From positions 1 to 33,132 of the IMG/VR virus record IMGVR_UViG_3300036766_000213: a stretch of 33,132 bases of DNA. One strand, written 5' to 3'. This document shows positions 6,714 through 31,098 of this stretch, in pieces (position 1 is the stretch's first letter; each line of letters begins with the position of its first letter). This DNA is from a virus. Below the pieces are notes generated by a model. It had not been told where the DNA came from. It was given only the letters and a program-made list of their open reading frames with translations, and did no database searches. The position numbers and the translations under genes are program-made.

Positions 6714-9242
6714 TCAGAATCGCAACACGGGGTACTGTCGACATTCTACAGTGGTCAGGACTGGTTGCCCAGCGCCGCCAGACCATTGCAGATCACGGAT
6801 AGACACGTCGTGGTCGAGCCCGGCAGCTTGGACCCGGAGATGAATGGATGGGATGGTCGCGAGCAGGAAGTTGGCCCCGGTCACGAACTTGACGATCATG
6901 CTCGCGCCCTCAAGCAATGCGAGTTTGGCTGCAGCCAGAGCCTCGACATCGTTTTCAATATACGGCAAGTTGATGGTGATGTCCTTGCGACGGTACCGGG
7001 CTTCAAGATCCGTCGCGACGACGGTAACGTGGATCGTGGACGTGTCTCCGCGTACCGCCTCGACCTTCTGCCCGAGTTCCGCAGACGTGCCATAGAGCGA
7101 GGGTGCGTTCTCGTCTACAGGGAGGCGCTCCATCGCGGGTGGTGCGCCATCCTTGGTCTCAGTCGTGCTTGATGACGGTTGCCCGTTGTACGTGTTGTTC
7201 ACAAATTGAAACACGGTGTGACCATTCTTGCCGTCGTTCTTTTGGTACTCGACTGTCTCAATCCCACTCAGGTCGTAAATCTCGGTCTGGTCCGTGGAGT
7301 AGATTCCGCCCGCATACCAATACTTGGCTCCCGGTCGCGCATAGTATGACCGCGTCAAGGTCTCGCGCCGCTTCTCAAACGATATCTCTCCGTCGTCCTC
7401 GACAAATGGTTCGACGGTCTCGATGACAGTGACGGTCTCGCGCAGACGTTCATAGGCCCCGAGATCACTGTTGATGCCTTCCCCCGTGCCCAGCGCGTAG
7501 CGGCCATTGGCATAGGGTGTCGCGTCGATGGCTGTCCCCGAGGTGACGGTTTTGAGAGACGACTTGGGCGCGTACATTGTCTGGGTGCGCACAACAGAGC
7601 CGAGGCGGATACCGTCGCGAGGGGAGCCGGGTATGTGGTCTAGGTCAACGGTCAGTTTGGCTACAGCATTGTACAGTTCCTCACTGACACCCACATACCC
7701 TAGTCCAGACGGGATGTCCGCGTAGCCGGGGCGGTTGTACACATTCCACGTCTCGGCGACAGATGTCAGTATGAAACTCTGCGCTAGGTTCAGGCGAGCT
7801 TGGGCACCGTCTAGCAACCCCGGCGCCGCGTCGTCTCCGAGGTAGGCAGACTCCAGCGCGGTGCGGATGCTCGCTCCGAACACAATGGTTCCTGTCGCGG
7901 GAGTCGCTGGTGCCCCTTCGACAGTGAACGTAAATGTGGTGCCACTCGCTATACCGATGACAAACGACCCGTTGTACTCAGGTTGGATCGCGCCGCTGAT
8001 ATCCGCCACGTCGCCATCAGCAAGGGCAGTAGTAGACGCAACTGTCGCTGTGGCAATCGACCCAGACCGAGTGATGGATGTGATCGAGATAGGCGACAGG
8101 GCCGTGTACAGGTATCGCGCAGCCAATTCGTTGTACCACTCGTATGTCTCCACACGTTGGTACAGCAACACACCACAGCGATAGATTCGATACACGATGA
8201 CCTGCTTCTCAATCCGCTCGATGATGGACTGAGTAGGGACAGTCAATGGGTCGAGTGTCGCGTCCACATGTTGTACCTGAGTCTGATACACCGGAGCAAA
8301 TACCCGCTTGATCGTGGTGATGAGTACCGGGGGCGAGGTCAGTCCACACGCATCTTGTAACTCTTGCTTGCTACCTGTGATCGTGACTCGTGTTGGGGGA
8401 TCGTGGGGCGGCGATATCGTCACAGTTGCAACGGCCAAGATGTCCTGCTCGGTCAGTGTGTACAGGGTCGAGTCAGGGTCCGGTGGGCCGATTGCGGGGT
8501 TGACGACCCACCCAGTCGTATCCCAGTTGAGTTTCCGCCCCTCGCTGTCCCATACCTCTTGAGTCTTGTCCAACGGGTTGACATCGACAAGCTGGAGTTC
8601 CTTGTAGCATGTGTTCATCGGGTGGAGCTTGAACTGGGACTCTCCGACAGAGGTCAAGAGCCGTTGCCCAATCTGGTCACGACGGAGCCCGTGGCCAGGG
8701 CCTAGTACCAGTGACCCGATCCGTCCATCGTACCGCCCACCACGGTCTACCCCGCTGAATGTCTGGATGTAGCCAGACGGGCTGACATTGATTGTGCCTG
8801 GGTCATCGACAATCCCACCAGTGATAAGCGGGGTGAGGTGGACACCAGTACTGGTACGCAGAACCCCGTACACGGTCACTGTGCCAAGCCCGATGGGCGA
8901 TCCTAGTGTGTTGAACACGTTGCCGAACACCCCACTCGGTGTCCGCAGGGCACAGGTAAAGGCCCAGTTCTGCAACAACTGGTCAATGGACCGGTGTACA
9001 GTCCACGACTGCACAAGATCGGTAATCAGGACAAGTCGGCCCGCGACGTAGATCCCGATACCAGGGCGCTGTACCACACCCGCTCGTGGTCGTGCTCCAA
9101 GTTCGATGGTCACGTCCAGAGCGAATTCGCCAAACGCTGCAGACTCCTCGGGTGATCCAGGGCCGAGCAAATACGCGACTCCAGACGCGACTGCGCCCTC
9201 CGCAGTCGATGTCAGTAGGGCCTGGTGGTATAACTCAGGCAT
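6714..9242 (-). CDS. Tail hub/tip protein with inserted mobile domain
   Basis: 842-aa protein placed after tape measure and distal-tail genes, where siphovirus hub (Tal-like) proteins are found. The N-terminal 120 residues and the region 170-380 are beta-rich with conserved-looking features (FSGVDRGGRYDGRIG at about 162-176, QTQVQHVDATLDP at 320-332). Residues 385-456 are a copy of the shared TR...YNG...PATPATG domain, interrupting an otherwise continuous helical/beta region. The C-terminus (VQAAGLDHDVSIRDLQWSG) looks like the terminal hub domain. It overlaps the preceding 208-aa gene by 8 nt. No peptidase or lysozyme motif is visible. The hub call rests on size, order and neighbours. Confidence 0.65.
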   Translation of the reverse strand: MPELYHQALLTSTAEGAVASGVAYLLGPGSPEESAAFGEFALDVTIELGARPRAGVVQRPGIGIYVAGRLVLITDLVQSWTVHRSIDQLLQNWAFTCALRTPSGVFGNVFNTLGSPIGLGTVTVYGVLRTSTGVHLTPLITGGIVDDPGTINVSPSGYIQTFSGVDRGGRYDGRIGSLVLGPGHGLRRDQIGQRLLTSVGESQFKLHPMNTCYKELQLVDVNPLDKTQEVWDSEGRKLNWDTTGWVVNPAIGPPDPDSTLYTLTEQDILAVATVTISPPHDPPTRVTITGSKQELQDACGLTSPPVLITTIKRVFAPVYQTQVQHVDATLDPLTVPTQSIIERIEKQVIVYRIYRCGVLLYQRVETYEWYNELAARYLYTALSPISITSITRSGSIATATVASTTALADGDVADISGAIQPEYNGSFVIGIASGTTFTFTVEGAPATPATGTIVFGASIRTALESAYLGDDAAPGLLDGAQARLNLAQSFILTSVAETWNVYNRPGYADIPSGLGYVGVSEELYNAVAKLTVDLDHIPGSPRDGIRLGSVVRTQTMYAPKSSLKTVTSGTAIDATPYANGRYALGTGEGINSDLGAYERLRETVTVIETVEPFVEDDGEISFEKRRETLTRSYYARPGAKYWYAGGIYSTDQTEIYDLSGIETVEYQKNDGKNGHTVFQFVNNTYNGQPSSSTTETKDGAPPAMERLPVDENAPSLYGTSAELGQKVEAVRGDTSTIHVTVVATDLEARYRRKDITINLPYIENDVEALAAAKLALLEGASMIVKFVTGANFLLATIPSIHLRVQAAGLDHDVSIRDLQWSGGAGQPVLTTVECRQYPVLRF
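7875..8090 (-). repeat. Shared inserted domain, copy in tail hub
   Basis: Encodes residues 385-456 of the hub protein. Signature: SITSITRSGSIATATVA, then GDVADISGA, YNGSF, TTFTFTV, PATPATGTI. Related copies lie in the tail tube, capsid and exported fibre genes, and nucleotide identity between them is low. Confidence 0.8.
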
Positions 9243-13790: not shown

Positions 13791-15374
13791 CTAGCTCGTC
13801 GCCATGATCGACGACGTAATATCGTTGCGAATCTCTGCGGTCCAGGCATCCGACCAGGTGTCACCATCATAGGTGTACGCGCTGTCCGGCACACCAGCGA
13901 CCCCGGTCAGGGCTTCCTTGCGGTCCTTGCCCCCCGCTGCGGGGCTGAACGCGTTGCCTTCAAACGTGACAGCCGGGAGCACGAACCGGGTACGGAAGTC
14001 CTTACCAGAAATCCCGATCTCGGTATCGAGCGGCGCTTCGATCACGACCGGCAGAACGGTCCCGAGCAAGAGCGCGTTCTGCAGATCGCGGTCCTGGATC
14101 TCGCGAGTCGGCTTGATGGTCGCGGACACCTGACCGCTGATTCGTGACGTGGCCGACTGCCGACCGTAGGTGTTCTCGATGCGCGAGACACCATCGGTAG
14201 CGAGTTCCAAGCTCCAACCCTGCTCAGTGATCTCGTTGTCGTTCAGGATGAACGTGACGTTGACCGAGGAGCAAGGCCGCTGGACACCGAGAGATGCAGA
14301 CCAGGAGGCGATCTTGCTCAGGATCTGCCACACGTCGTTGGCAGAGGCTGTGTAGCCAGTCGGCCAGTACGCTCGGATCTGCTCGGCCACGACACCGATG
14401 CGCCGGTCTACCTCGTCCACGAGTTCGTTGTAGACCCGGCTGTGGTAGCCCGCGACGAACACGTCAGAGGTGGCGCCGAAGGAGGCAGCGGTCCCGATTT
14501 TGCCGCGCATGAGACCCGCACTGATGTACTTGATGAAGATGTCGCGGTCCACACCGTCAGCAGCGAGGTTGCCTTCCCAGAACTTGGTCAGGACGGGTTT
14601 GGTCGAGCCGCTACCGGCCGTCTGGGTGACTGCGCCATGGAGAGTGAACTCACCGACTGCAAGAGCGATGGCAAGGTCGAAGTTCTGGTTGGGCTGGGCG
14701 CCGAACGTCATGGACTTGACCGCGCAGTCGTGGAAGCGGAACGGGATACCTTGGTCGTAGTCCTCACAGATCGACAAGCGCGGGGACGCGGAGGTGGTCT
14801 GAGAGGCGCCGAACAGCCACCGGTTGTAACCGTAGATGGAGTAGACCGGGGTGCCTGTGGCGGGGGTAGCTGGGGTGTTGGCTACCGTGTAGGTGAAGGT
14901 CGTGCCGGTCGCGACCGTGATCGTGAACCGGCCATTGTAGTCTGTCTGCGTTGCCCCGGTGATCCAGAGTTCGTCACCGGAAGTCAGAGCAGCAGTAGAT
15001 GCGACGGTCGCGGTAGCTGTGGCACCCGATCGCGTGATGGAGGTGATGGTGATGGTTCCGCTGACCGTGTACTTGCGAGCCAGATTGGCCAGCGACAAGA
15101 GCCCCATCGGATCGCTCAGATCCCAGTCACCCATGTCTTGGGTACTGTCCGGCGCCGTGATCTTCCCCAGCATGCGCTTCAACACGTCGATGCTGGAGTT
15201 GAGCGTGCGCTGGGCATAGGTCGTCGGGTTGATGCTCAGAGGGCCGAGGTTCGACCGGTAGTCGTGGTACAGGCTCATGTCGATCACGGGCACACCGACA
15301 GTCGGCTGTGGCGCGACACGACGCTTGGTGACGATGGGATCGCCAATGGCTGAGTTGTAAAATGGCTGTGTCAC
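13791..15374 (-). CDS. Major tail tube protein with inserted domain
   Basis: 527-aa protein directly upstream of the tape measure gene. Two tube-like beta-sandwich halves can be made out: residues about 195-260 (ICEDYDQGIPFRFHDCAVKSMTFGA, with later FDLAIALAVGEFTLHG) and about 380-490 (VTFILNDNEITEQGWSLEL, SATIKPTREIQDRDLQNALL, FVLPAVTFEGNAFSP). Such pseudo-duplicated tubes occur in several siphovirus groups. Residues 107-178 are a copy of the shared TR...YNG...PATPATG domain, which would project from the tube. The start is preceded by AGGAG. The size is well above the roughly 150-250 aa of simple tube proteins, explained by duplication plus insertion. A tail sheath is less likely, as no separate tube gene is seen. 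Confidence 0.7.
   Translation of the reverse strand: MTQPFYNSAIGDPIVTKRRVAPQPTVGVPVIDMSLYHDYRSNLGPLSINPTTYAQRTLNSSIDVLKRMLGKITAPDSTQDMGDWDLSDPMGLLSLANLARKYTVSGTITITSITRSGATATATVASTAALTSGDELWITGATQTDYNGRFTITVATGTTFTYTVANTPATPATGTPVYSIYGYNRWLFGASQTTSASPRLSICEDYDQGIPFRFHDCAVKSMTFGAQPNQNFDLAIALAVGEFTLHGAVTQTAGSGSTKPVLTKFWEGNLAADGVDRDIFIKYISAGLMRGKIGTAASFGATSDVFVAGYHSRVYNELVDEVDRRIGVVAEQIRAYWPTGYTASANDVWQILSKIASWSASLGVQRPCSSVNVTFILNDNEITEQGWSLELATDGVSRIENTYGRQSATSRISGQVSATIKPTREIQDRDLQNALLLGTVLPVVIEAPLDTEIGISGKDFRTRFVLPAVTFEGNAFSPAAGGKDRKEALTGVAGVPDSAYTYDGDTWSDAWTAEIRNDITSSIMATS
14841..15056 (-). repeat. Shared inserted domain, copy in tail tube
   Basis: Encodes residues 107-178 of the tail tube protein: TITITSITRSGATATATVA, GDELWITGA, YNGRFTITVATGTTFTYTV, PATPATGT. 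It is the copy closest in protein sequence to that of the hub. Confidence 0.8.
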
Positions 15375-17849: not shown

Positions 17850-18323
17850 TCACTTCTTCGACTTATGGACAGCCTTCTTCGTAGCAGGCGCAGGCACAGG
17901 CGATGGCTCTGGCTCCGACTCTGGCTCCGACTCTGGCTCCGGCTCCGACTCCGACTCCGGGGCCACACTCGCAGCCTTCACAGCCTTCACAGCCTCTGCA
18001 GCCTCTGCAGTCGCCGCCGCTACCCGTTCTGCTTGGCCACTATTCGCCATGGACAACGCTTCCGCTTCCGTGGCCATGAACACATCGCCACGCATAAGGA
18101 ACCCCGCATTCATCCCTGGGCCAAACATGCGCTTGATCTTGACCCGCATCTTCACGCTACGCACGTCTGCCACGATTTCACCATTCTCGATCCTCATAGA
18201 CACCCCCTGTTCGTCAGCCAGACCAATGTACTCGGACTTCAAACGACGGTCAGGGGGAGGGATATCAGCACGGGAGATGTGGATACCGGATTCATCATTC
18301 GGTATAGCGACTGTGTCTCCCAT
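17850..18323 (-). CDS. Small protein with Glu-Ser/Glu-Pro repeat tail
   Basis: 157-aa protein between capsid and connector genes. Residues 1-85 form a folded-looking part (MRIENGEIVADVRSVKMRV, then IKRMFGPGMNAGFLMRGD). Residues about 85-120 are an Ala-rich helix, about 122-145 an acidic repeat of Glu-Ser and Glu-Pro dipeptides, and the end is Lys-rich (TKKAVHKSKK). The repeat is encoded by a 6-bp array at 17885-17960. No known domain recognised. Position suggests a head-associated or connector-region protein; the acidic repeat might make a flexible spacer. Confidence 0.55.
   Translation of the reverse strand: MGDTVAIPNDESGIHISRADIPPPDRRLKSEYIGLADEQGVSMRIENGEIVADVRSVKMRVKIKRMFGPGMNAGFLMRGDVFMATEAEALSMANSGQAERVAAATAEAAEAVKAVKAASVAPESESEPEPESEPESEPEPSPVPAPATKKAVHKSKK
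17885..17960. repeat. Hexanucleotide array (Glu-Ser/Glu-Pro coding)
   Basis: About twelve imperfect 6-bp units, mainly TCTGGC, TCCGAC and TCCGGC on the plus strand. Read on the minus strand in the GAG-TCG frame it gives ESEPEP-type peptide; a near-identical array at 29999-30076 is read in another frame. Confidence 0.85.
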
Positions 18324-18384: not shown

Positions 18385-19959
18385 CTACGGGCTCGGGGCC
18401 GTGTCGAGGTCGATCACGACGAACGCGTTGGGCAAGTACCACTCTGCGTTCATGCGCTCTTCGGCCAAGATGGTCACGAGGTTGCTGGTGAAGTCCGACG
18501 CGTGCTGGTCGGCCAGACGGATGTTGGCGGCCTGACGGTCGCGGATCGCGCACGCCATGGCAAAGTTGCCAACGACCGCATCACCAGCCTGCATGCCGTT
18601 GCTGACGACCAACGGGATGCGCCAGATACGGATGCCGTCGCCACCACCGGGCTGCGGGGTCGCAGCGAGGATGTACTCGCCGGTGGACGCCTTGGTGGTC
18701 TCGATGTCCTCCCAGTCGTTCGGGTTGATGATGGCCGCGTCAGCTTCCGGGGCCTCAACCACCTGGGTCAGAGTCATCGCACGACGGATCGCGTCGAGCT
18801 TGGTGTCGGAGACCGGGCCACTGGACCAAGCGTAGGACTGGGTGCCGGAGAGGGTCATCAGACCTTGGATCTGCGGCGTGGTGCCCGTCGCGTAGAGCAG
18901 GGCCTCGTCCTCTCTGCGCTTCAAGCCGTAGGTCAGATCGCCGTCGATCTGGTTACGGAGGGAACCGAGGTCATCGAGGACTTGGCGACTCGCCTTGATG
19001 AAGTGCGCGATCACCTGGACAGGCGCGATGACTTCCTCGTAGTACAGCTTGGCTTCGGGCTTGGCATCGCCCTCAGCAACGAAGTCAGCAGCACCGTAGT
19101 TGTTGAGGCGCCGCATGACCAAGGTGCCCGACGCGGATCCGTTGGACTGGTCAGCGATGGTGTAGGTGAACACGGTGGTCGAGGTGACAGTGATCTGCTT
19201 ACGACCGTTGAAGGCCGCGACCGACGCCCCAGCGATCAGGACGTAGTCACCGGTCTTGAAGCCATGTGCGGCGGCTGCGGTCACAGTCGCCGTGGTGGTG
19301 GCAGTGGTGATGGACGTGACCGAGGACGCAGTCGCGGGGCTGAACCCGTACTTGCGGAGATACGCCGTGGACGGGGCCGAAGTCCCGATGACGGGCATCA
19401 GGTCACGCATGCGAAGGGCGCGGCCAGGGAGCGGGACGATGGACGGACGCCAGTCGGGACGGATGAAGTTCAGGGTCTCAGTCGTGACCAAGGACTTCTG
19501 ACCGAGGGCCTGGAGAAATGCCTTCTCTTGGAGACTTGGGCCATGGAACGACTTGGCCGAGACACCGGGGAGCCCGGAGACCGTGTTGCGCGAGAGCGTG
19601 CCCATGAACAGGTCACGGTTCTCAGCGACGACCTCGCAGAACTTCTCGCCGAGAGACTTGGCAGCTTCCTTCTCCTCGTCGGAGGCAGGGCCACCAAACC
19701 CGAGACCGCCACGCTGGGCCTTGAGTTCGTACTCGTCCAAGCGCTCGGTGAGCTTGGCGATCATCGCCTGACCGTCGATCAGGGCCTGCTGGCGATTGGC
19801 TTCGGCAGCTTCAAGGGCTTTGGCAGTCTTTTCCGTCGACACGCCATTGGCCTTGATCTCGGCCTGCTGGGCATCCAAGAGAGACTTGATCTCCTTGGCA
19901 CTGCCGTTGACTGCCTCAGAGAGTTCCTGAAGCACCTTCATTTCTGGGGTGGGTTCCAT
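18385..19959 (-). CDS. HK97-fold major capsid protein with E-loop insertion
   Basis: 524-aa capsid precursor. Residues 1-80 are a coiled-coil delta/scaffold domain, probably removed by the adjacent protease. The HK97 core begins about residue 120-160. RDLMPVIGTSAPSTAYLRKYGF (about 185-206) is the start of the E-loop, and ADFVAEGDAKPE (291-302) with VQVIAHFIKASRQVLDD (314-330) matches the HK97 stretch ADVVAEKALKPE...IAHWVQASRQVMDD. Between them, at about 212-284, sits a foreign domain with TATVTAAAAHGF, GDYVLIAGA, FNGRKQITVTSTTVFTYTI. The C-terminal P and A domain segments (ADAAIINPNDWEDIE; IRDRQAANIRLADQH) are present. Strong AAGGAG seven bases before the ATG. Whether Lys/Asn crosslinks form cannot be told. 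Confidence 0.93.
   Translation of the reverse strand: MEPTPEMKVLQELSEAVNGSAKEIKSLLDAQQAEIKANGVSTEKTAKALEAAEANRQQALIDGQAMIAKLTERLDEYELKAQRGGLGFGGPASDEEKEAAKSLGEKFCEVVAENRDLFMGTLSRNTVSGLPGVSAKSFHGPSLQEKAFLQALGQKSLVTTETLNFIRPDWRPSIVPLPGRALRMRDLMPVIGTSAPSTAYLRKYGFSPATASSVTSITTATTTATVTAAAAHGFKTGDYVLIAGASVAAFNGRKQITVTSTTVFTYTIADQSNGSASGTLVMRRLNNYGAADFVAEGDAKPEAKLYYEEVIAPVQVIAHFIKASRQVLDDLGSLRNQIDGDLTYGLKRREDEALLYATGTTPQIQGLMTLSGTQSYAWSSGPVSDTKLDAIRRAMTLTQVVEAPEADAAIINPNDWEDIETTKASTGEYILAATPQPGGGDGIRIWRIPLVVSNGMQAGDAVVGNFAMACAIRDRQAANIRLADQHASDFTSNLVTILAEERMNAEWYLPNAFVVIDLDTAPSP
19108..19326 (-). repeat. Shared inserted domain, copy in capsid E-loop
   Basis: Encodes residues about 212-284 of the capsid protein. 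It has the HGFKTGDYV, FNGRKQITV and FTYTI pattern but ends SASGTL instead of PATPATG, making it the most divergent copy. Confidence 0.75.
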
Positions 19960-24165: not shown

Positions 24166-24799
24166 CGAGTAGCTCGCCTTCTTCGGCTGACCCTTGTTCG
24201 TCAGGCGGGACCATGCTGCTCGTCAACAGGGCTACTGTCTCTCGACCATTCGACGGGAGTTCGACAATGGTAAACAGGGCCTCGCCGTCCTGCCCCGTGT
24301 GTTGGACTTCCTGGGCGGGTTTGCCAAATGCTCGATCCAAGATGGAGTTGGCCGCAAACATGCGGTCACTGTCTTTGGCCCCATCGTGGACATTCTCGCC
24401 AAGGCAGGCAGGACAAAACATCCGTGCGGGGCTGCCTGTCTGGAAGAAGAACCTGTGGCCGCAGTCGTCACATACACGCTTGTCGCGGATTTCGACAAAG
24501 GTGAGCAGGGATCGCTTACCTTCGGTCGCGGCGAGACTCTTGAGGAGTTCCGCACGGGCGCGGATGACGCTGACTTTGAGCGAGCGTTGGCCCGCGTTGG
24601 TACGGTCTGGAAGGGAGACAGGTGGAGTAGGGACAAGGGCGGGGACGAGGGCGGGGGCGGGGAGGGGGGCTGTGGCACAAGACACGGCTACAGCCCCAGC
24701 GTTGTCAGAAGCCCCGATGGACGGGGTCTGGGTCCGGGTCTGGCTCCGAGTCCGGGTCCGGGTCGTTGGCTTGTGCTTGGCACTCGACTTGGGAGACAT
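24155..24799 (-). CDS. Zinc-ribbon protein in small-terminase position
   Basis: 214-aa protein directly upstream of TerL and overlapping it by 11 nt. Residues 12-26 are a Thr/Arg/Gln repeat encoded by a 6-bp array, and residues about 42-65 are a Pro/Ala/Val repeat. A helical part (about 70-95) leads into a four-Cys zinc ribbon: C110, C113, C129, C132 (Cx2C-x15-Cx2C). The C-terminal part contains ANSILDRAFGKPAQEV, a pattern seen in phage proteins encoded beside terminases and in some small subunits. It is the best candidate for the DNA-recognition subunit of terminase, though the family is not the classical one and a separate regulatory role is possible. Confidence 0.6.
   Translation of the reverse strand: MSPKSSAKHKPTTRTRTRSQTRTQTPSIGASDNAGAVAVSCATAPLPAPALVPALVPTPPVSLPDRTNAGQRSLKVSVIRARAELLKSLAATEGKRSLLTFVEIRDKRVCDDCGHRFFFQTGSPARMFCPACLGENVHDGAKDSDRMFAANSILDRAFGKPAQEVQHTGQDGEALFTIVELPSNGRETVALLTSSMVPPDEQGSAEEGELLDVE
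24724..24766. repeat. Hexanucleotide array (Thr-Arg/Thr-Gln coding)
   Basis: About seven 6-bp units of the TCCGGG/TCTGGC type, read on the minus strand as ACC-CGG and ACC-CAG codons to give the basic TRTRTRSQTRTQT arm of the zinc-ribbon protein. Confidence 0.8.
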
Positions 24800-25968: not shown

Positions 25969-28296
25969 TTAGGTGCATGTCCAGCCTGGTGCGAACGCTG
26001 TACCGCCGCCAACGATGGCTACGGCAAACCAGTTGACGGTTCCGTCAGCGACGAGCGTAACGCTGTCGCCGATGGTAGTGGAGTCGCAATGACCGCCAGC
26101 GGCGGACACCGCCGAGCCGATGCGGATGACGGCGGAACCAGGGGCGGTGATGCGAATGCCATCCGCGTCCGTCACTGTGAACGTGTAGCGCAGGCCGTCA
26201 ACAGCGGTCGGCAACGTGTGGTAGTTCTGCGCGGTTGAGCCGGTGTTGTAATAGAACGTGCCGGACTCGGTGTTGAGGATGACGTTCGGTGAACCGCTAC
26301 CAACGGTTGAGTCCTCGTTCAGCACGCTCGACAAGAGTTTACCCGTAGCCTTCGTGCCGTTGAACGCTCCCTGAAGCTCCAGAACACCAGCCGCACTGCG
26401 ACCAATGGAAACGTCTACATTCCCAGTCGTCGGCGGCCCGCCGCTCGCCCAACCCATCGTCCCGCTTACGCCGGTGACGATGACTTGATACGTTGTATCG
26501 AAGGCGTGCATGTTCGTGCCGACGTAGACGACGTTGGACGGCCCGTCGATCTTGGTGAGCTTGAGGGTGCCGAGCCCGTTGTTATCCGCCGTGGTGTCCA
26601 CCGACACGATCCCGGACGTTCCAGCAGTCAGCCCAGTCGCTGCGGTAAAGTTACCCGCCGCTGACCAAGTGCCCCACTTCACCCCGCCAGCGGTGCTGCC
26701 TGTGTTGAGCGCGGTGCCCGCGCCAGTCGCCACGACGGTGCCGGAAATGGACGAGTTGTTGTATTGGTAGATCGGCGAGTTTGCGACGATTGAACTCGCG
26801 CCACCAGCCGAGGAATTCGTATCCTCGACACCGAAGAACAACTTCCCGGCCAGGATGTTGCCCGTCGCCGGAGTCGCCGGAGTCCCAACGACGGTGTACG
26901 TGTAGACGCAGGGTGCGCCGCAAGAGGAGCGGGTGAATACGAACGTCCCGTTGTACTCTGGCTGATCCGCGCCGGTGATCGTACCCATGAACGTAGCGCC
27001 GCCGAATCCGGGGTTGTTCGTCATCGTCAGGGTCGCTGTCGAGCCGGATCGGGTGATCGAGTCCGGGATCGTCTGGTTTTGGAACATCGCGATGCCGGGG
27101 CGGTAGTCCGCCGAGGCGCCCGCAGGGATGACGAGCGAGCCCTGCGTCGAAGCCGTGGTGGTGCCGTGGACGCCGACGAGCAGCCGCTGCGCCTCGACCT
27201 CGCCCATGCCGGCGTTGGTCGAGCCGACGAGAGATAACCGCCCGTTAGCAGCCGTGCTGCCCTGGAGGGTCGCGGCTTGCAGCGTCCCGAGACCGTTCGA
27301 CGTGCTGCCGGAATCCACCGACAGTGTTCCTGCGCTTGATCGTGTCAGACCGACATCGCTCCAATTGAGAGTCAAGGCGGAATCGAGAGAGAGGGTGTTT
27401 TGGTTGAAGTAATTCTTCCGCGTCGCACCGTTGTAGACTTCGAGTTGCGCTGTTGCGGCGACACCTGATGTCGGCGCCGTCACGCTGCTAGTTGACGAAA
27501 ACGCGTTGGATAGAAGAGTGGCGGCGGTCGTAGTTCCCGGCAGCGTCGGGTTCGTCGGAATCGACAGCGTGACAGCGCCAGTCGCGGCGCTCGCAGTAAT
27601 CTGATTCGCCGTGCCGGTAATCGTTGTCGGCAGCGCGGTGCATGACTCGGTAGCACCCGAAGCGTCCACGCCGAGGGGAAACTGTCCCGCTGTGCAGTTG
27701 GCCCCGTTCGCGGCCAGCGCCGTCGCGGTAGCAACCGGAGTCGAAAGTGAAAGCGTGACCGTATCCGTTGCGCTGTTACCGGTGACGACGATGGGCGATG
27801 TCCCGGTGAGCGTGAGCGTATCCGTCGCGCTGTCCGCTACCGGGCTCGTGCCGCTTGAAGTCGTGATCGTCTCGAAACTGTTGCCACCGCCACCCCCCGC
27901 AACACAACTCGCTGTCCCTGCCGTATCAAAACTGATGATCTCAGTGCCGCTTGCCGGGGTACAGCTATTTGCAAACATAGCAAGGTTGGGGCTGACCACG
28001 GGTAGCTTGATCTGGAACACGGTATCGCCCACGACGATCCGATAGCTCCCTGCAACCGCGTAGAACGCCAACACACCAGAGCCATTGGTAGTGGTGGGGT
28101 TAGCCTCGGGGGTGATGCCTGCGTCGGTATACAGGGTAGCCAACACACCATTGGCAATGGTCACTGTCGCCGTGGCCGACTTGAGGGTCACGCTACCGTG
28201 CTTCATGGTCTGGCTAAACGCGTAGTACGTGGTCGCCAGACCAGGGGTCGACAGTACAAGCCCGCAGACAAGTACCAGCCATGCAATACGCTTCAT
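25969..28296 (-). CDS. Sec-exported fibre-like repeat protein
   Basis: 775-aa protein from the ATG at 28296, chosen because AAGGAG lies about seven bases before it; an in-frame extension upstream exists but lacks a site. Residues 1-21 are a typical Sec signal (MKRIAWLVLVCGLVLS, cleavage after GLA at about 21). Residues 40-100 carry ANGVLATLYTDAGITPEANP and FYAVAGSYRIVVG, a module common at the start of phage fibres. Long Ser/Thr repeats follow, a copy of the shared domain lies at 411-485, and GLGTLQAATL/GLGTLKLTK duplications are present. The mature part has eight Cys in four close pairs (112/131, 201/219, 459/463, 737/774), fitting an oxidising compartment. It is probably an appendage or cell-surface protein. 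Confidence 0.65.
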   Translation of the reverse strand: MKRIAWLVLVCGLVLSTPGLATTYYAFSQTMKHGSVTLKSATATVTIANGVLATLYTDAGITPEANPTTTNGSGVLAFYAVAGSYRIVVGDTVFQIKLPVVSPNLAMFANSCTPASGTEIISFDTAGTASCVAGGGGGNSFETITTSSGTSPVADSATDTLTLTGTSPIVVTGNSATDTVTLSLSTPVATATALAANGANCTAGQFPLGVDASGATESCTALPTTITGTANQITASAATGAVTLSIPTNPTLPGTTTAATLLSNAFSSTSSVTAPTSGVAATAQLEVYNGATRKNYFNQNTLSLDSALTLNWSDVGLTRSSAGTLSVDSGSTSNGLGTLQAATLQGSTAANGRLSLVGSTNAGMGEVEAQRLLVGVHGTTTASTQGSLVIPAGASADYRPGIAMFQNQTIPDSITRSGSTATLTMTNNPGFGGATFMGTITGADQPEYNGTFVFTRSSCGAPCVYTYTVVGTPATPATGNILAGKLFFGVEDTNSSAGGASSIVANSPIYQYNNSSISGTVVATGAGTALNTGSTAGGVKWGTWSAAGNFTAATGLTAGTSGIVSVDTTADNNGLGTLKLTKIDGPSNVVYVGTNMHAFDTTYQVIVTGVSGTMGWASGGPPTTGNVDVSIGRSAAGVLELQGAFNGTKATGKLLSSVLNEDSTVGSGSPNVILNTESGTFYYNTGSTAQNYHTLPTAVDGLRYTFTVTDADGIRITAPGSAVIRIGSAVSAAGGHCDSTTIGDSVTLVADGTVNWFAVAIVGGGTAFAPGWTCT
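26842..27066 (-). repeat. Shared inserted domain, copy in exported fibre
   Basis: Encodes residues 411-485: PDSITRSGSTATLTMT, TGADQPEYNGTFVFTR, an extra SSCGAPC turn, VYTYTV, and PATPATGN. The Cys pair is unique to this copy. Confidence 0.8.
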
Positions 28297-28331
28297 AGAT
28301 AGCTCCTTGTTGCGGTCTAGCAATGGAGATA

Positions 28332-28364
28332 GAGACAGAGCCGTGAGACAGAGCGTGAGTCCGT
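28332..28364. repeat. Short tandem repeat in spacer
   Basis: GAGACAGAGCCGT, GAGACAGAGCGT and GAGTCCGT form a degenerate 12-13 bp repeat between the two signal-peptide genes. Confidence 0.5.
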
Positions 28365-28378
28365 GGGTCGTAGTCAGA

Positions 28379-29032
28379 CTAGTAGTCCGCCCGTGCGATC
28401 CAGTCACAAGTAATCACGCCGCTGACCGCGACCGCACCCGCGCCCGAGGAGGCCGCGTTGGGCATGGCAAGGTTGAGGTAAATCTTGTTGGCAGTCGTGT
28501 GACCGTCGAGAGCAAGGATGGTCCCGTAGCCTTGTAACACACCCGCGCTAGAGGTCAATGTGCCTGCCATGGACGCGATGATGTTGGCCTCGGTAGAGGT
28601 GAGGCTATCGTCCCCATCATCTGTTGCTGACCCAAGACTACCGACCAGAGCCGCAGTGTTGGTGATGTTGGCCGAGGCTTCCAAAGTGGTCAGGTTAGCC
28701 GTACACCCGAGGATCTGGGTGATGCCTTCCGGGAAGGTATAGATCAACTGTCCACCGGACCCACCGTCTGTGGTGTGGTCAGCGGTCGTGACCGAGAGCG
28801 AGGCCAGAGTGAACTTGGTGTGATGAATCGGCATGGCGCCGGACTCCACCACGGTTACTGCACTGCCGGTCTTGGCACCGTTGGCCGAGGACGAGTAGAC
28901 GAATGCGTCTTTGATGAGTTGGTCCGATAGGAACCGGTTCTGCGCGTGGACAGGAGCAGGGAGCACGGTGAGCAGGGTGAATGCGACGAGCAGGGTCAGA
29001 GCGATGGCTACGAGCTTACTGGTCAGGCGCAT
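28379..29032 (-). CDS. Sec-exported small virion-like protein
   Basis: 217-aa protein with a clear Sec signal peptide: MRLTSKLVAIALTLLVAF, cleavage after VHA at residue 30. The mature part (QLIYTFPEGITQILGC, STEANIIASMAG, ANKIYLNLAMPN, then GVITCDW) follows the pattern of beta-rich phage proteins that are usually cytoplasmic virion components, but here it is preceded by an export signal. It has exactly two Cys (110 and 209), as would fit a disulfide. AAGGGAG lies eight bases before the ATG. It is the first gene of the minus unit after the HU-like gene. Function unknown; a surface or particle-associated role is inferred. Confidence 0.65.
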   Translation of the reverse strand: MRLTSKLVAIALTLLVAFTLLTVLPAPVHAQNRFLSDQLIKDAFVYSSSANGAKTGSAVTVVESGAMPIHHTKFTLASLSVTTADHTTDGGSGGQLIYTFPEGITQILGCTANLTTLEASANITNTAALVGSLGSATDDGDDSLTSTEANIIASMAGTLTSSAGVLQGYGTILALDGHTTANKIYLNLAMPNAASSGAGAVAVSGVITCDWIARADY

Positions 29033-29296
29033 GGCGGTGTCTCCCTTGACAGTGTTAACAGTAGGACGGTGTAAAGCAGACTAGAGTCGAGTGGGGTATG
29101 TAGGGTGTGAACATCACGGGGCAAATAGTAACACATGAACAAGGTGTGTGTAGGCTATGTGGGGTTGGCCCGAGTAAGGGGCCGCTACAGGTGGTACGTG
29201 GCAGGTTAGAACGAGATAGCTAGAGTTGAGCGTCCCTTGAGCGTCCCTTGAGCGTCCCTTGAGCGTCCCTTGAGCACCATCTCCATCATTCCCACA
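29033..29296. other. 264-bp spacer between HU-like and exported genes
   Basis: No convincing gene. It contains an 11-bp tandem array (29226-29275), a GGCCC-7-GGGCC hairpin at 29167-29183 without T-run, and TGTTAACA (palindrome) near 29053. No clear minus-strand sigma-70 promoter could be picked. Confidence 0.5.
29226..29275. repeat. 11-bp tandem repeat (TTGAGCGTCCC)
   Basis: Four exact copies of TTGAGCGTCCC followed by a partial TTGAGC. The unit is not a multiple of three and would shift frame each copy, so it is not protein-driven. Confidence 0.9.
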
Positions 29297-30265
29297 CTAT
29301 CTCGGCCCTGACAACATCGGTTTCATCCGCCGAATCTTCGCGATCCACGCTTTGCGCCGTCGATACTCTGGAGAATCAGTAAATGTCTGACCGTCGTCCA
29401 GCCCACAGCGTTCCTGGTTGCGCTCCCAGGCCCTTTTCTCGGCAGCCATGATCTCGCGTGTGTGGGCGCGAAGCCACGCTATTCCCACCTTGTCCTTGTG
29501 CTGGAGCTTGGCCAGCAGCTTCGGAGACGATGCCCTGGTCGGCGTGCTATCGAGATGCCGCGACAGGGTGGAGCCAAACCGGTACGCGATATATCGGTAG
29601 CCATAGAGTTCCCTCGGCGGGCGATACAACACCGTCAAGTACGCGGGAGTGTAGACCTTCATGTTCAGGTGCACATTCCAGTTCCACCGTCCCCAGTGCC
29701 AATGCGGGTGGAGAATGCCGAACCCCTGAATCTCGATGCGCCGCCCAGCGCCAAGGGCCGCAGTCAGACGCGCAACAATCGTAGCAATAGCTATGCGGGC
29801 CATGTCGTCGGGCAGCCCACACGCATCGCGGAGCCGCGCCCGCAGATATGTCTCGGTGCGCTTGCCGAGCGGACTCGTGAACATGTACCGATCAGCGCGG
29901 CGCCCCTCCAAGGCCGCATCAATTGCCAAGTCGTCCATGGTGTCTGAGTTGTCGAATGCGGTCCATGGGGTGCCATCGACATCATGTGTGAGACTGGGAC
30001 TCCGACTCTGGCTATGACTCTGGCTCCGGCTATGACTCTGGCTATGACTCTGGCTCCGGCTCCGGCTCCGGCTCTTTTGGCTGGTCAACACCTCCACCAT
30101 CGCCTGCACCTTAGCGCGGTCCACAGCGGGTCTAGAGCTACGTGGCTTAGGCCCGGATCTCGGACGGATAAGCGGTATCTGACCCACCCAACCAAAATCA
30201 GTTACGCGGTCGGCTGACAGTTGGGCAGTCATGCGGTGAGTGGAGTAGCTAGGGGTGGTGGGCAT
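29297..30265 (-). CDS. HU/IHF-like protein with SR-type linker and Trp/His arm
   Basis: 322 aa from the ATG at 30265; an ATG at 30232 and a GTG at 30313 also fit, none with a good ribosome site. Residues 65-89 are a Ser-Arg/Ser-Gln/Ser-His repeat. Residues about 129-219 align to HU/IHF with the same spacing: helix pair (YLRARLRDACGLPDD, IATIVARLTAALGAG), RRIEIQGFGIL, then a 35-residue arm and LTVLYRPPREL. The arm is HPHWHWGRWNWNVHLN, so the RNPxTG tip with its DNA-intercalating Pro is replaced by WNV. A basic C-terminal extension of about 100 residues follows, of a kind not found in ordinary HU. It is encoded beside the putative origin. Likely DNA-bending or nucleoid/replication factor. Confidence 0.7.
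   Translation of the reverse strand: MPTTPSYSTHRMTAQLSADRVTDFGWVGQIPLIRPRSGPKPRSSRPAVDRAKVQAMVEVLTSQKSRSRSRSQSHSQSHSRSQSHSQSRSPSLTHDVDGTPWTAFDNSDTMDDLAIDAALEGRRADRYMFTSPLGKRTETYLRARLRDACGLPDDMARIAIATIVARLTAALGAGRRIEIQGFGILHPHWHWGRWNWNVHLNMKVYTPAYLTVLYRPPRELYGYRYIAYRFGSTLSRHLDSTPTRASSPKLLAKLQHKDKVGIAWLRAHTREIMAAEKRAWERNQERCGLDDGQTFTDSPEYRRRKAWIAKIRRMKPMLSGPR
29999..30076. repeat. Hexanucleotide array (Ser-Arg/Gln/His coding)
   Basis: About thirteen 6-bp units (TCTGGC, TATGAC, TCCGGC). Read on the minus strand in the AGC-CGG frame they give the SR/SQ/SH repeat of the HU-like protein, whereas the similar array at 17885-17960 is read one base over. Confidence 0.9.
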
Positions 30266-30394: not shown

Positions 30395-30531
30395 TTTTCC
30401 ACAGCTTTTCCACAGGCCACGCACAGAGTTTTCCACAGCTTTTCCGCAGTTGCGGATATCTTGTGGAAAAGTCCAGAGTTTTCCACAGAGTTTTCCACAG
30501 CTTTTCCACACTGTGGAAATCCTGCGGAAAA
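30395..30531. other. Putative replication origin: DnaA-box-like iterons
   Basis: Ten 9-bp sites. Plus-orientation TTTTCCACA at 30395, 30406, 30429, 30479, 30491 and 30502; TTTTCCGCA at 30440. Minus-orientation TTTTCCACA at 30462-30470, ATTTCCACA at 30512-30520 and TTTTCCGCA at 30523-30531. Neighbours are mostly 10-12 bp apart, one helical turn. The sites fit the relaxed DnaA consensus TTWTNCACA. AT-rich stretches lie on both sides (about 30307-30350 and 30541-30610, the latter with GATATATC), suitable for unwinding. They sit between divergent gene units with no gene in 30307-30699. A phage-encoded iteron-binding initiator is an alternative reader. Confidence 0.7.
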
Positions 30532-30650
30532 GCCCGCAAATCGAATATGCATAGAAGGCTATGGCACGAGGATTGATAGACTGGTATATCTATGGTATGC
30601 GATATATCGGTGATATGCAAGCCTAGTGCCAACTATTTTTGCGCGGGCTA

Positions 30651-30678
30651 TTGACAAAGGCAATGTATCAGATACAGT
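30651..30678 (+). promoter_or_regulatory. Rightward promoter P1 with TATC-A-GATA palindrome
   Basis: TTGACA at 30651-30656, 16-bp spacing, TACAGT at 30673-30678. GTATC-A-GATAC (30665-30675) is a perfect 11-bp hyphenated palindrome overlapping the -10, a likely operator. AAGGAG follows at 30686-30691, before the ATG at 30700. Confidence 0.6.
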
Positions 30679-30699
30679 AGCGCCCAAGGAGATTTCCCA

Positions 30700-31005
30700 A
30701 TGACCTATCTCGACGCGCTACCCTACGCCGCCGCAGTGACTCCCACCCTCGGCACCATGATTAACTCCGAGCCAGAACGTGCCGCCATGCGCAGTCAAAT
30801 CGACTGCATACATACCCTGTTGACACCGTTTGACCGTGCGCGGCCTTGCGCATGGGAATCGCTTACTGCCGGCGCAGCGCTGCTAGCGTGGGATCGTATG
30901 GTCAGGCTGTCGCGCCTGTCGCGCACTGATCCCACGATGCGTACCAGTTTAGAGTACGGTCGCGCCATGCTGGTATGTGACGAGCTTGGGATGCCGATGC
31001 CGTAG
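30700..31005 (+). CDS. First gene of rightward operon, unknown function
   Basis: 101-aa protein preceded by AAGGAG eight bases before its ATG and by promoter P1. It is mostly helical (EPERAAMRSQIDCIHTLL; AGAALLAWDRMVRLSRLS) with no recognised domain or DNA-binding motif. As the first product after the origin and an operator-like site it could be an early regulator or replication accessory, but nothing in the sequence shows this. Base composition matches the neighbouring structural genes. Confidence 0.6.
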   Translation: MTYLDALPYAAAVTPTLGTMINSEPERAAMRSQIDCIHTLLTPFDRARPCAWESLTAGAALLAWDRMVRLSRLSRTDPTMRTSLEYGRAMLVCDELGMPMP

Positions 31006-31009
31006 GGTG

Positions 31010-31039
31010 TTGACATCGTAATGATGTATCAGATAGGGT
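31010..31039 (+). promoter_or_regulatory. Rightward promoter P2 with same operator half-sites
   Basis: TTGACA at 31010-31015 and weak TAGGGT at 31034-31039 (18-bp spacing). GTATCAGATAG at 31026-31036 is one base off the P1 palindrome. The shared ATGTATCAGATA suggests a common regulator. Confidence 0.5.
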
Positions 31040-31098
31040 AGCAGCAGCTAGCAGCCAATACCGGCCCGCTAGGTAGCAGGAACAGAAAGGCTAGAACC

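What the first reader, a model, noticed from the sequence alone, without database searches (positions are those of the whole stretch)
29297..30265. HU/IHF-like protein with Trp/His arm lacking the intercalating proline
The domain matches HU length for length, including the 35-residue arm, but the arm tip RNPxTG is replaced by WNVHLN in a WHWGRWNWN context. The Trp could intercalate or stack in place of Pro, giving another bend or specificity. It is fused to an SR-type low-complexity linker and a basic C-terminal extension and is encoded directly beside the putative origin. Such a fusion is not one I know.
Basis: partly seen in the sequence, partly recalled or inferred. Interest (0 to 1): 0.78.

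Follow-up and report, generated by a model that had tools for sequence, protein, structure and literature searches.

The report
Phage HU-like protein, proline-free arm
A phage genome fragment from an environmental sequence collection encodes a divergent relative of the bacterial DNA-bending protein HU/IHF whose DNA-gripping arm lost its usual proline and most positive charges and gained tryptophans and histidines; it is an unusual version of a common protein, and whether it still bends DNA is untested.

Summary
The minus-strand ORF at 29297-30265 contains an HU/IHF-fold domain. A profile built from 50 viral HUs aligns without a gap over 78 positions at 25.4 bits, against 3.5 bits for the best of 2000 shuffles. 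AlphaFold2 on an alignment gives an HU model (pLDDT 88.9), and the best PDB matches are all HU/IHF. The match is remote: about 25-31% identity, below Pfam's cut-off, and no close homologue was found.

The arm has HU length, but its tip RNPxTG reads WNVHLN. Pro63 became Val, Arg61 became Trp, and Arg53/55 became His. It carries 3 Lys/Arg where other viral arms carry 4-11, and 4 Trp where they carry at most 1.

The residue at the intercalation position is Val, not Trp. Two other phage HUs lack the proline and keep Asn followed by Leu or Ile, so proline loss is rare but not unique. Tailed HUs are known. The neighbouring TTTTCCACA array looks like DnaA boxes (pairs 2-3 bp apart), but a link to this protein is adjacency only.

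Best reading: a phage-encoded, strongly diverged HU-superfamily DNA-architectural protein. It is a new variant of a known kind.

The parts
29297..30265 (-). ORF of the HU-like protein, 322 aa from ATG 30265 (352-codon open frame; GTG 30313 and ATG 30100 are alternative starts; ATG 30100 gives 267 aa and has an AAGG 8 bases upstream)
29987..30076 (-). SR/SQ/SH dipeptide low-complexity run (residues 64-93), encoded by period-6/12/18/30 DNA repeats
29591..29866 (-). HU/IHF-fold domain (alpha1, alpha2, beta arm, alpha3)
29624..29716 (-). beta-arm segment ILHPHWHWGRWNWNVHLNMKVYTPAYLTVLY: 4 Trp, 4 His, only 2 Lys/Arg in these 31 residues
29663..29680 (-). arm tip WNVHLN, aligned with RNPxTG; Val at the intercalating-proline position, Asn kept
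29300..29569 (-). basic C-terminal extension (90 aa, net +11), no family match
30395..30531 (.). array of nine DnaA-box-like 9-mers (seven-to-two on plus and minus strands; TTTTCCACA or TTTTCCGCA), three same-strand gaps of 2 bp and one of 3 bp
   Evidence: 14 matches with up to 1 mismatch in the window, expected 3.7, 0 of 100 shuffles reach it
30530..30709 (.). AT-richer stretch (60-base windows at 40-47% GC, genome about 59%) beside the array; ends at the start of the plus-strand genes

Best explanation
The gene encodes a strongly diverged, phage-borne member of the HU/IHF (DNABII) superfamily. SHOWN: a domain with HU topology, kept hydrophobic core and kept G-F-G hinge; an arm of HU length with tip W61-N62-V63-H64 instead of R-N-P-K and few basic residues; flanking SR-rich and basic tails. 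INFERRED: it dimerises like HU, the two arms embrace DNA, and Val63 (with Trp61 beside it) acts as the hydrophobic wedge in place of proline, as the aliphatic Leu or Ile would in two other proline-free phage HUs. The lost arm charge is made up by the basic C-terminal extension and the Arg/His-rich linker, so binding would be mostly non-sequence-specific and bending weaker than or different from HU. It would serve as the phage's own DNA-architectural protein, possibly at the DnaA-box-like array next to its gene (this last step is speculative, about 0.2).
For: Gapless viral-HU profile match, 25.4 bits against 3.5 for shuffles. AlphaFold2 model pLDDT 88.9 with helices 13-24 and 28-47, arm strands and C-terminal helix. 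HU/IHF among the top PDB and viral structure matches, Z about 10. Hydrophobic and glycine positions kept column by column. Two further phage HUs without the proline, L028 (N-L) and Bacteroides phage BS-TP4 (N-I), are clear family members: PF00216 62.7 bits for L028, phrog_379 'DNA binding protein' for both. Tails are basic, and an extended C-terminal tail is needed for nucleoid binding in HupB (PMC5676037). Proline intercalation is what normally fixes the two kinks (PMC8421141).
Against: DNA binding is untested, and the arm has 3 Lys/Arg against 4-11 in 85 viral arms, so it may not bind DNA through the arms at all. No close homologue exists in any collection searched, so selection on the arm cannot be measured. 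The confident model depends on an HU-only alignment. Profile scores stay below Pfam and NCBIfam cut-offs.
Confidence: 0.6

Rival explanations
1. The HU domain is kept only as a dimerisation scaffold. The arm, with four Trp, four His and little charge, has become a protein-protein (or ligand) contact surface, and nucleic-acid contact, if any, is made by the basic tails.
For: Loss of basic residues at positions 53, 55, 61 and 64, three Trp on variable arm positions, 4 Trp against at most 1 in other viral arms. Pfam holds HU branches named for CCDC81-type proteins (models listed), and from my own knowledge some of these branches are thought to act outside DNA binding.
Against: Arg58 and Asn62 are retained, the tip still carries an aliphatic residue, arm length is exactly conserved, and the whole protein is strongly basic.
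Confidence: 0.22
2. A decaying gene: the arm drifted (perhaps helped by hexanucleotide-repeat slippage, which is common in this genome) and the protein no longer works.
For: Codon score of the ORF is lower than that of the structural genes. Period-6 repeats in this and other genes. No homologue to show constraint.
Against: Frame open for 352 codons with no stop. GC by codon position in the HU part is 0.59/0.51/0.75, as in the other genes. Hydrophobic core kept while mainly surface positions changed, and arm length unchanged. No other reading frame gives an RNPxTG arm.
Confidence: 0.1
3. Not HU at all: a chance resemblance of a helical-plus-GFG segment.
For: Single-sequence AlphaFold2 and its fold search give nothing; Pfam score below its cut-off.
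Against: 25.4 bits against 3.5 for the best of 2000 shuffles, gapless over 78 columns; hits in Pfam, NCBIfam IHF-beta and PDB IHF-beta.
Confidence: 0.05

Closest known systems
HU/IHF (DNABII) proteins, e.g. IHF-beta (PDB 8flj, 1ihf) and HU (4qjn, 1p71)
   Same: Fold, GFG hinge, arm length, Asn before the tip residue, aligned gapless across helix 2 and arm
   Different: Pro63 replaced by Val, Arg61 by Trp, Arg53/55 by His, arm charge much reduced, about 25-31% identity, long tails on both sides
Phage HU family phrog_379, in particular the proline-free members L028 (IMG/VR 3300017605_000962) and Bacteroides phage BS-TP4 gp49 (L296)
   Same: Phage-encoded HU fold; tip N followed by an aliphatic residue (Leu, Ile) instead of Pro
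   Different: They are short (91-103 aa), have no Trp/His arm, no tails, and match family models well; the window protein matches no PHROG
HU with low-complexity or basic tails (mycobacterial HupB/MDP1, Bacteroidetes HU_bacL, HU_ins clade; PMC5676037, PMC5683647)
   Same: HU core plus long basic or low-complexity extension
   Different: Known tails are Lys/Ala/Pro (PAKKA) type or Glu/Lys-rich; here an SR/SH/SQ run on the N-terminal side and a 90-aa C-terminal extension
African swine fever virus pA104R (viral HU/IHF)
   Same: Viral HU; its proline was reported to enter the major groove without inducing a clear bend (PMC7712801), showing that tip chemistry and bending can be uncoupled
   Different: pA104R keeps the proline and a densely basic cradle; arms longer

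Membership tests
HU/IHF (DNABII) superfamily | HU fold: two-helix dimer core, long beta-ribbon arm, C-terminal helix | tested here: met
   AlphaFold2 model with alignment pLDDT 88.9, Foldseek and VIA-align matches to HU/IHF at the top; caveat: alignment-guided, single-sequence model uninformative
HU/IHF (DNABII) superfamily | Profile similarity beyond chance with the G-F-G hinge | tested here: met
   25.4 bits against 3.5 for the best of 2000 shuffles; G-F-G present in register
HU/IHF (DNABII) superfamily | Score above the curated Pfam PF00216 cut-off (22.4 bits); a detection threshold, not a structural feature | tested here: not met
   17.7, 18.7 and 20.6 bits depending on the stretch given
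Canonical HU or IHF | Arm-tip proline (RNPxTG) that intercalates | tested here: not met
   Val at that column; 117 of 119 compared HUs have Pro; all 68 bacterial hits keep it, found with patterns that do not include that column
Canonical HU or IHF | Basic arm residues at positions 53, 55, 58, 61 | tested here: not met
   H, H, R, W; 3 Lys/Arg in the 34 arm residues against a range of 4-11
Canonical HU or IHF | Dimerisation, DNA binding and bending | not testable with these tools
   needs biochemistry
DnaA-dependent origin (30395-30531) | Clustered DnaA boxes, with pairs 2-3 bp apart | tested here: met
   nine boxes matching TTWTNCRCA in 137 bp with gaps of 2 bp (three times) and 3 bp (once); E. 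coli DnaA prefers pairs 2-3 bp apart (PMC11317965); TTTTCCACA is the box of most cyanobacteria (PMC4674748)
DnaA-dependent origin (30395-30531) | Replication starts there, DnaA binds | not testable with these tools
   no replication gene recognised on this fragment

The most novel reading that the evidence does not exclude
A HU-fold protein in which the cationic, proline-tipped DNA-bending arm has been rebuilt as a Trp/His beta-hairpin with a different job: either a new DNA-recognition mode (aliphatic and aromatic wedge plus pH-sensitive histidines) or a protein-binding hairpin, with DNA affinity moved into SR-type and basic tails, used by a phage at its own origin.
Probability: 0.25. Interest if true: 0.65.

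Novelty: new variant of a known kind. Interest (0 to 1): 0.42.

Why it matters
The intercalating proline and the cationic arms are the textbook features by which HU/IHF kinks DNA. Natural proteins that keep the fold but lack these features (this one, plus two milder phage examples found here) are ready-made tests of which parts of the arm are needed for binding, which for bending, and whether an aliphatic residue can replace the proline.

Tried and rejected
Close homologues by exact 8-mer patterns in 2.9 million virus contigs: none. tblastn against phage and plasmid records: none. Degenerate search for the GFG-x5-W-x-W-x-R-W arm in virus contigs: 31 chance hits, none an HU. Relatives of the phage by large terminase: many at 44-51% identity, but they share almost no other gene and no homologue of this protein; two carry ordinary HU genes. 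HU genes in the 24 virus contigs that share the GTTTTCCACAGCTTTTCC motif: none. Single-sequence structure prediction: uninformative. The Pfam hit to coronavirus nucleocapsid (E 0.0004, below cut-off) is the SR low-complexity run, not homology. Frameshift explanation for the odd arm: no other frame gives an RNPxTG tip. Promoter scan: no convincing promoter for the minus-strand gene. Survey bias: the viral HU set was partly collected with a pattern that contains the proline; the bacterial set was not. A known survey of divergent HU clades (Burroughs, Aravind and colleagues, from memory) could not be read; the DOI tried is not held.

Full report
The window is a 33,132-base IMG/VR virus record of a tailed phage: large terminase, portal, head protease and major head protein lie on the minus strand at 24165-18385. 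The finding is the first gene of the minus-strand block; a divergent intergenic region separates it from small plus-strand genes that match no family.

Observation. The ORF translates as described. Residues 137-235 match HU/IHF weakly in single-sequence tests: PF00216 E 0.0005-0.004, under the curated cut-off; PDB IHF-beta E 0.0024; NCBIfam IHF-beta E 0.0007. To get beyond this I collected viral HU genes, reduced them to 50 non-redundant sequences and built a profile. It matches the window protein at 25.4 bits over 78 columns without a gap, against 3.5 bits for the best of 2000 shuffles, and no other window ORF scores. AlphaFold2 without an alignment was uninformative (pLDDT 52.6). With the 51-sequence alignment it gives pLDDT 88.9 and the complete HU topology. 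PDB and viral libraries return HU/IHF proteins at the top (VIA Z about 10). I regard HU-superfamily membership as secure, with the caveat that the model was guided by HU sequences.

The arm. Column by column the core is kept: L36, G39, I42, I44, G46-F47-G48, V69, P81 and L85 are the usual or similar residues. The arm is not. Positions 53, 55, 58 and 61, basic in most HUs, read H, H, R, W; position 63, Pro in 117 of 119, is Val; Asn62 is kept. Over 34 arm residues there are 3 Lys/Arg (85 viral arms: mean 7.7, range 4-11), 4 Trp (at most 1 elsewhere) and 4 His (at most 3 elsewhere). All 68 bacterial relatives, collected with patterns that do not include the proline column, keep the proline (the few flagged 'noNP' by my narrow text pattern also carry Pro on inspection). 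Two other phage proteins lack it: L028 (ANLYYKT) and Bacteroides phage BS-TP4 (RNIYKRT). Both have Asn followed by an aliphatic residue, as here (Asn-Val). This pattern, not a Trp-for-Pro swap, is the simplest reading. In established structural work the arm proline intercalates and stabilises the kinks (PMC8421141), and from general knowledge aliphatic side chains intercalate in other DNA-bending proteins. So Val63 may serve as the wedge, with Trp61 beside it. Trp54, 56 and 59 align with variable positions and may face away from DNA (inference; no coordinates of a DNA complex are available).

Tails. The SR/SQ/SH run (residues 64-93) is encoded by short-period DNA repeats. Similar period-6/12 repeats encode dipeptide runs in other genes of this phage (17905-17960, 24724-24764), so the run is partly a genome-wide habit and not specific to this protein. 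The C-terminal 90 residues are basic (net +11) and match nothing. HUs with long tails are well documented. The start codon is uncertain; ATG 30100, just before the SR run, is the only upstream ATG candidate with an AAGG before it.

Neighbouring DNA. 30395-30531 holds nine 9-mers of the form TTTTCC[A/G]CA on both strands, far above chance, with same-strand pair gaps of 2 and 3 bp, the arrangement E. coli DnaA prefers (PMC11317965). TTTTCCACA is the DnaA box of most cyanobacteria (PMC4674748). An AT-richer stretch follows. An origin or DnaA-responsive control region is plausible. Unrelated virus contigs carry similar arrays without a recognisable HU gene, so the HU-like protein is not a fixed partner of such arrays.

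Conclusion. This is a divergent phage HU-superfamily protein with an exceptional arm: a new variant of a known kind. DNA binding and bending by a Val/Trp tip with help from basic tails is the best-supported mechanism (0.6). A repurposed arm is the main rival (0.22).

Noticed in passing
18385-19959, 13791-15374, 6714-9242, 25969-28407 (minus strand): A similar ~70-aa module (phrog_9998-like, 'ITSITRSGSTATATVAS...YNG.F.I...TFTYTV..TPATPATGT') lies in three proteins by PHROG match, the major head protein among them, and by eye in a fourth (25969-28407).
   Followed up: no
17905-17960, 24724-24764, 29998-30075: Short-period (6/12/18) DNA repeats encode dipeptide low-complexity runs (SE/PE, RT/QT, SR/SH/SQ) in several genes of the same phage.
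   Followed up: partly
29226-29275: Perfect 11-bp tandem repeat TTGAGCGTCCC, 4.5 copies, just downstream of the HU-like gene.
   Followed up: no
30651-30681 and 31011-31042: Two plus-strand promoter-like sites share ATGTATCAGATA, as if under one regulator.
   Followed up: no
L011:8217-8341, L014:5733-5830, L002:1522-1947: Unrelated virus contigs carry arrays of the same TTTTCCACAG-type unit; in L011 the array lies inside an open reading frame.
   Followed up: partly
L303, frame from base 20: A phage of Silvanigrella aquatica encodes two HU domains in one polypeptide, the second with INPKNRE at the tip.
   Followed up: no
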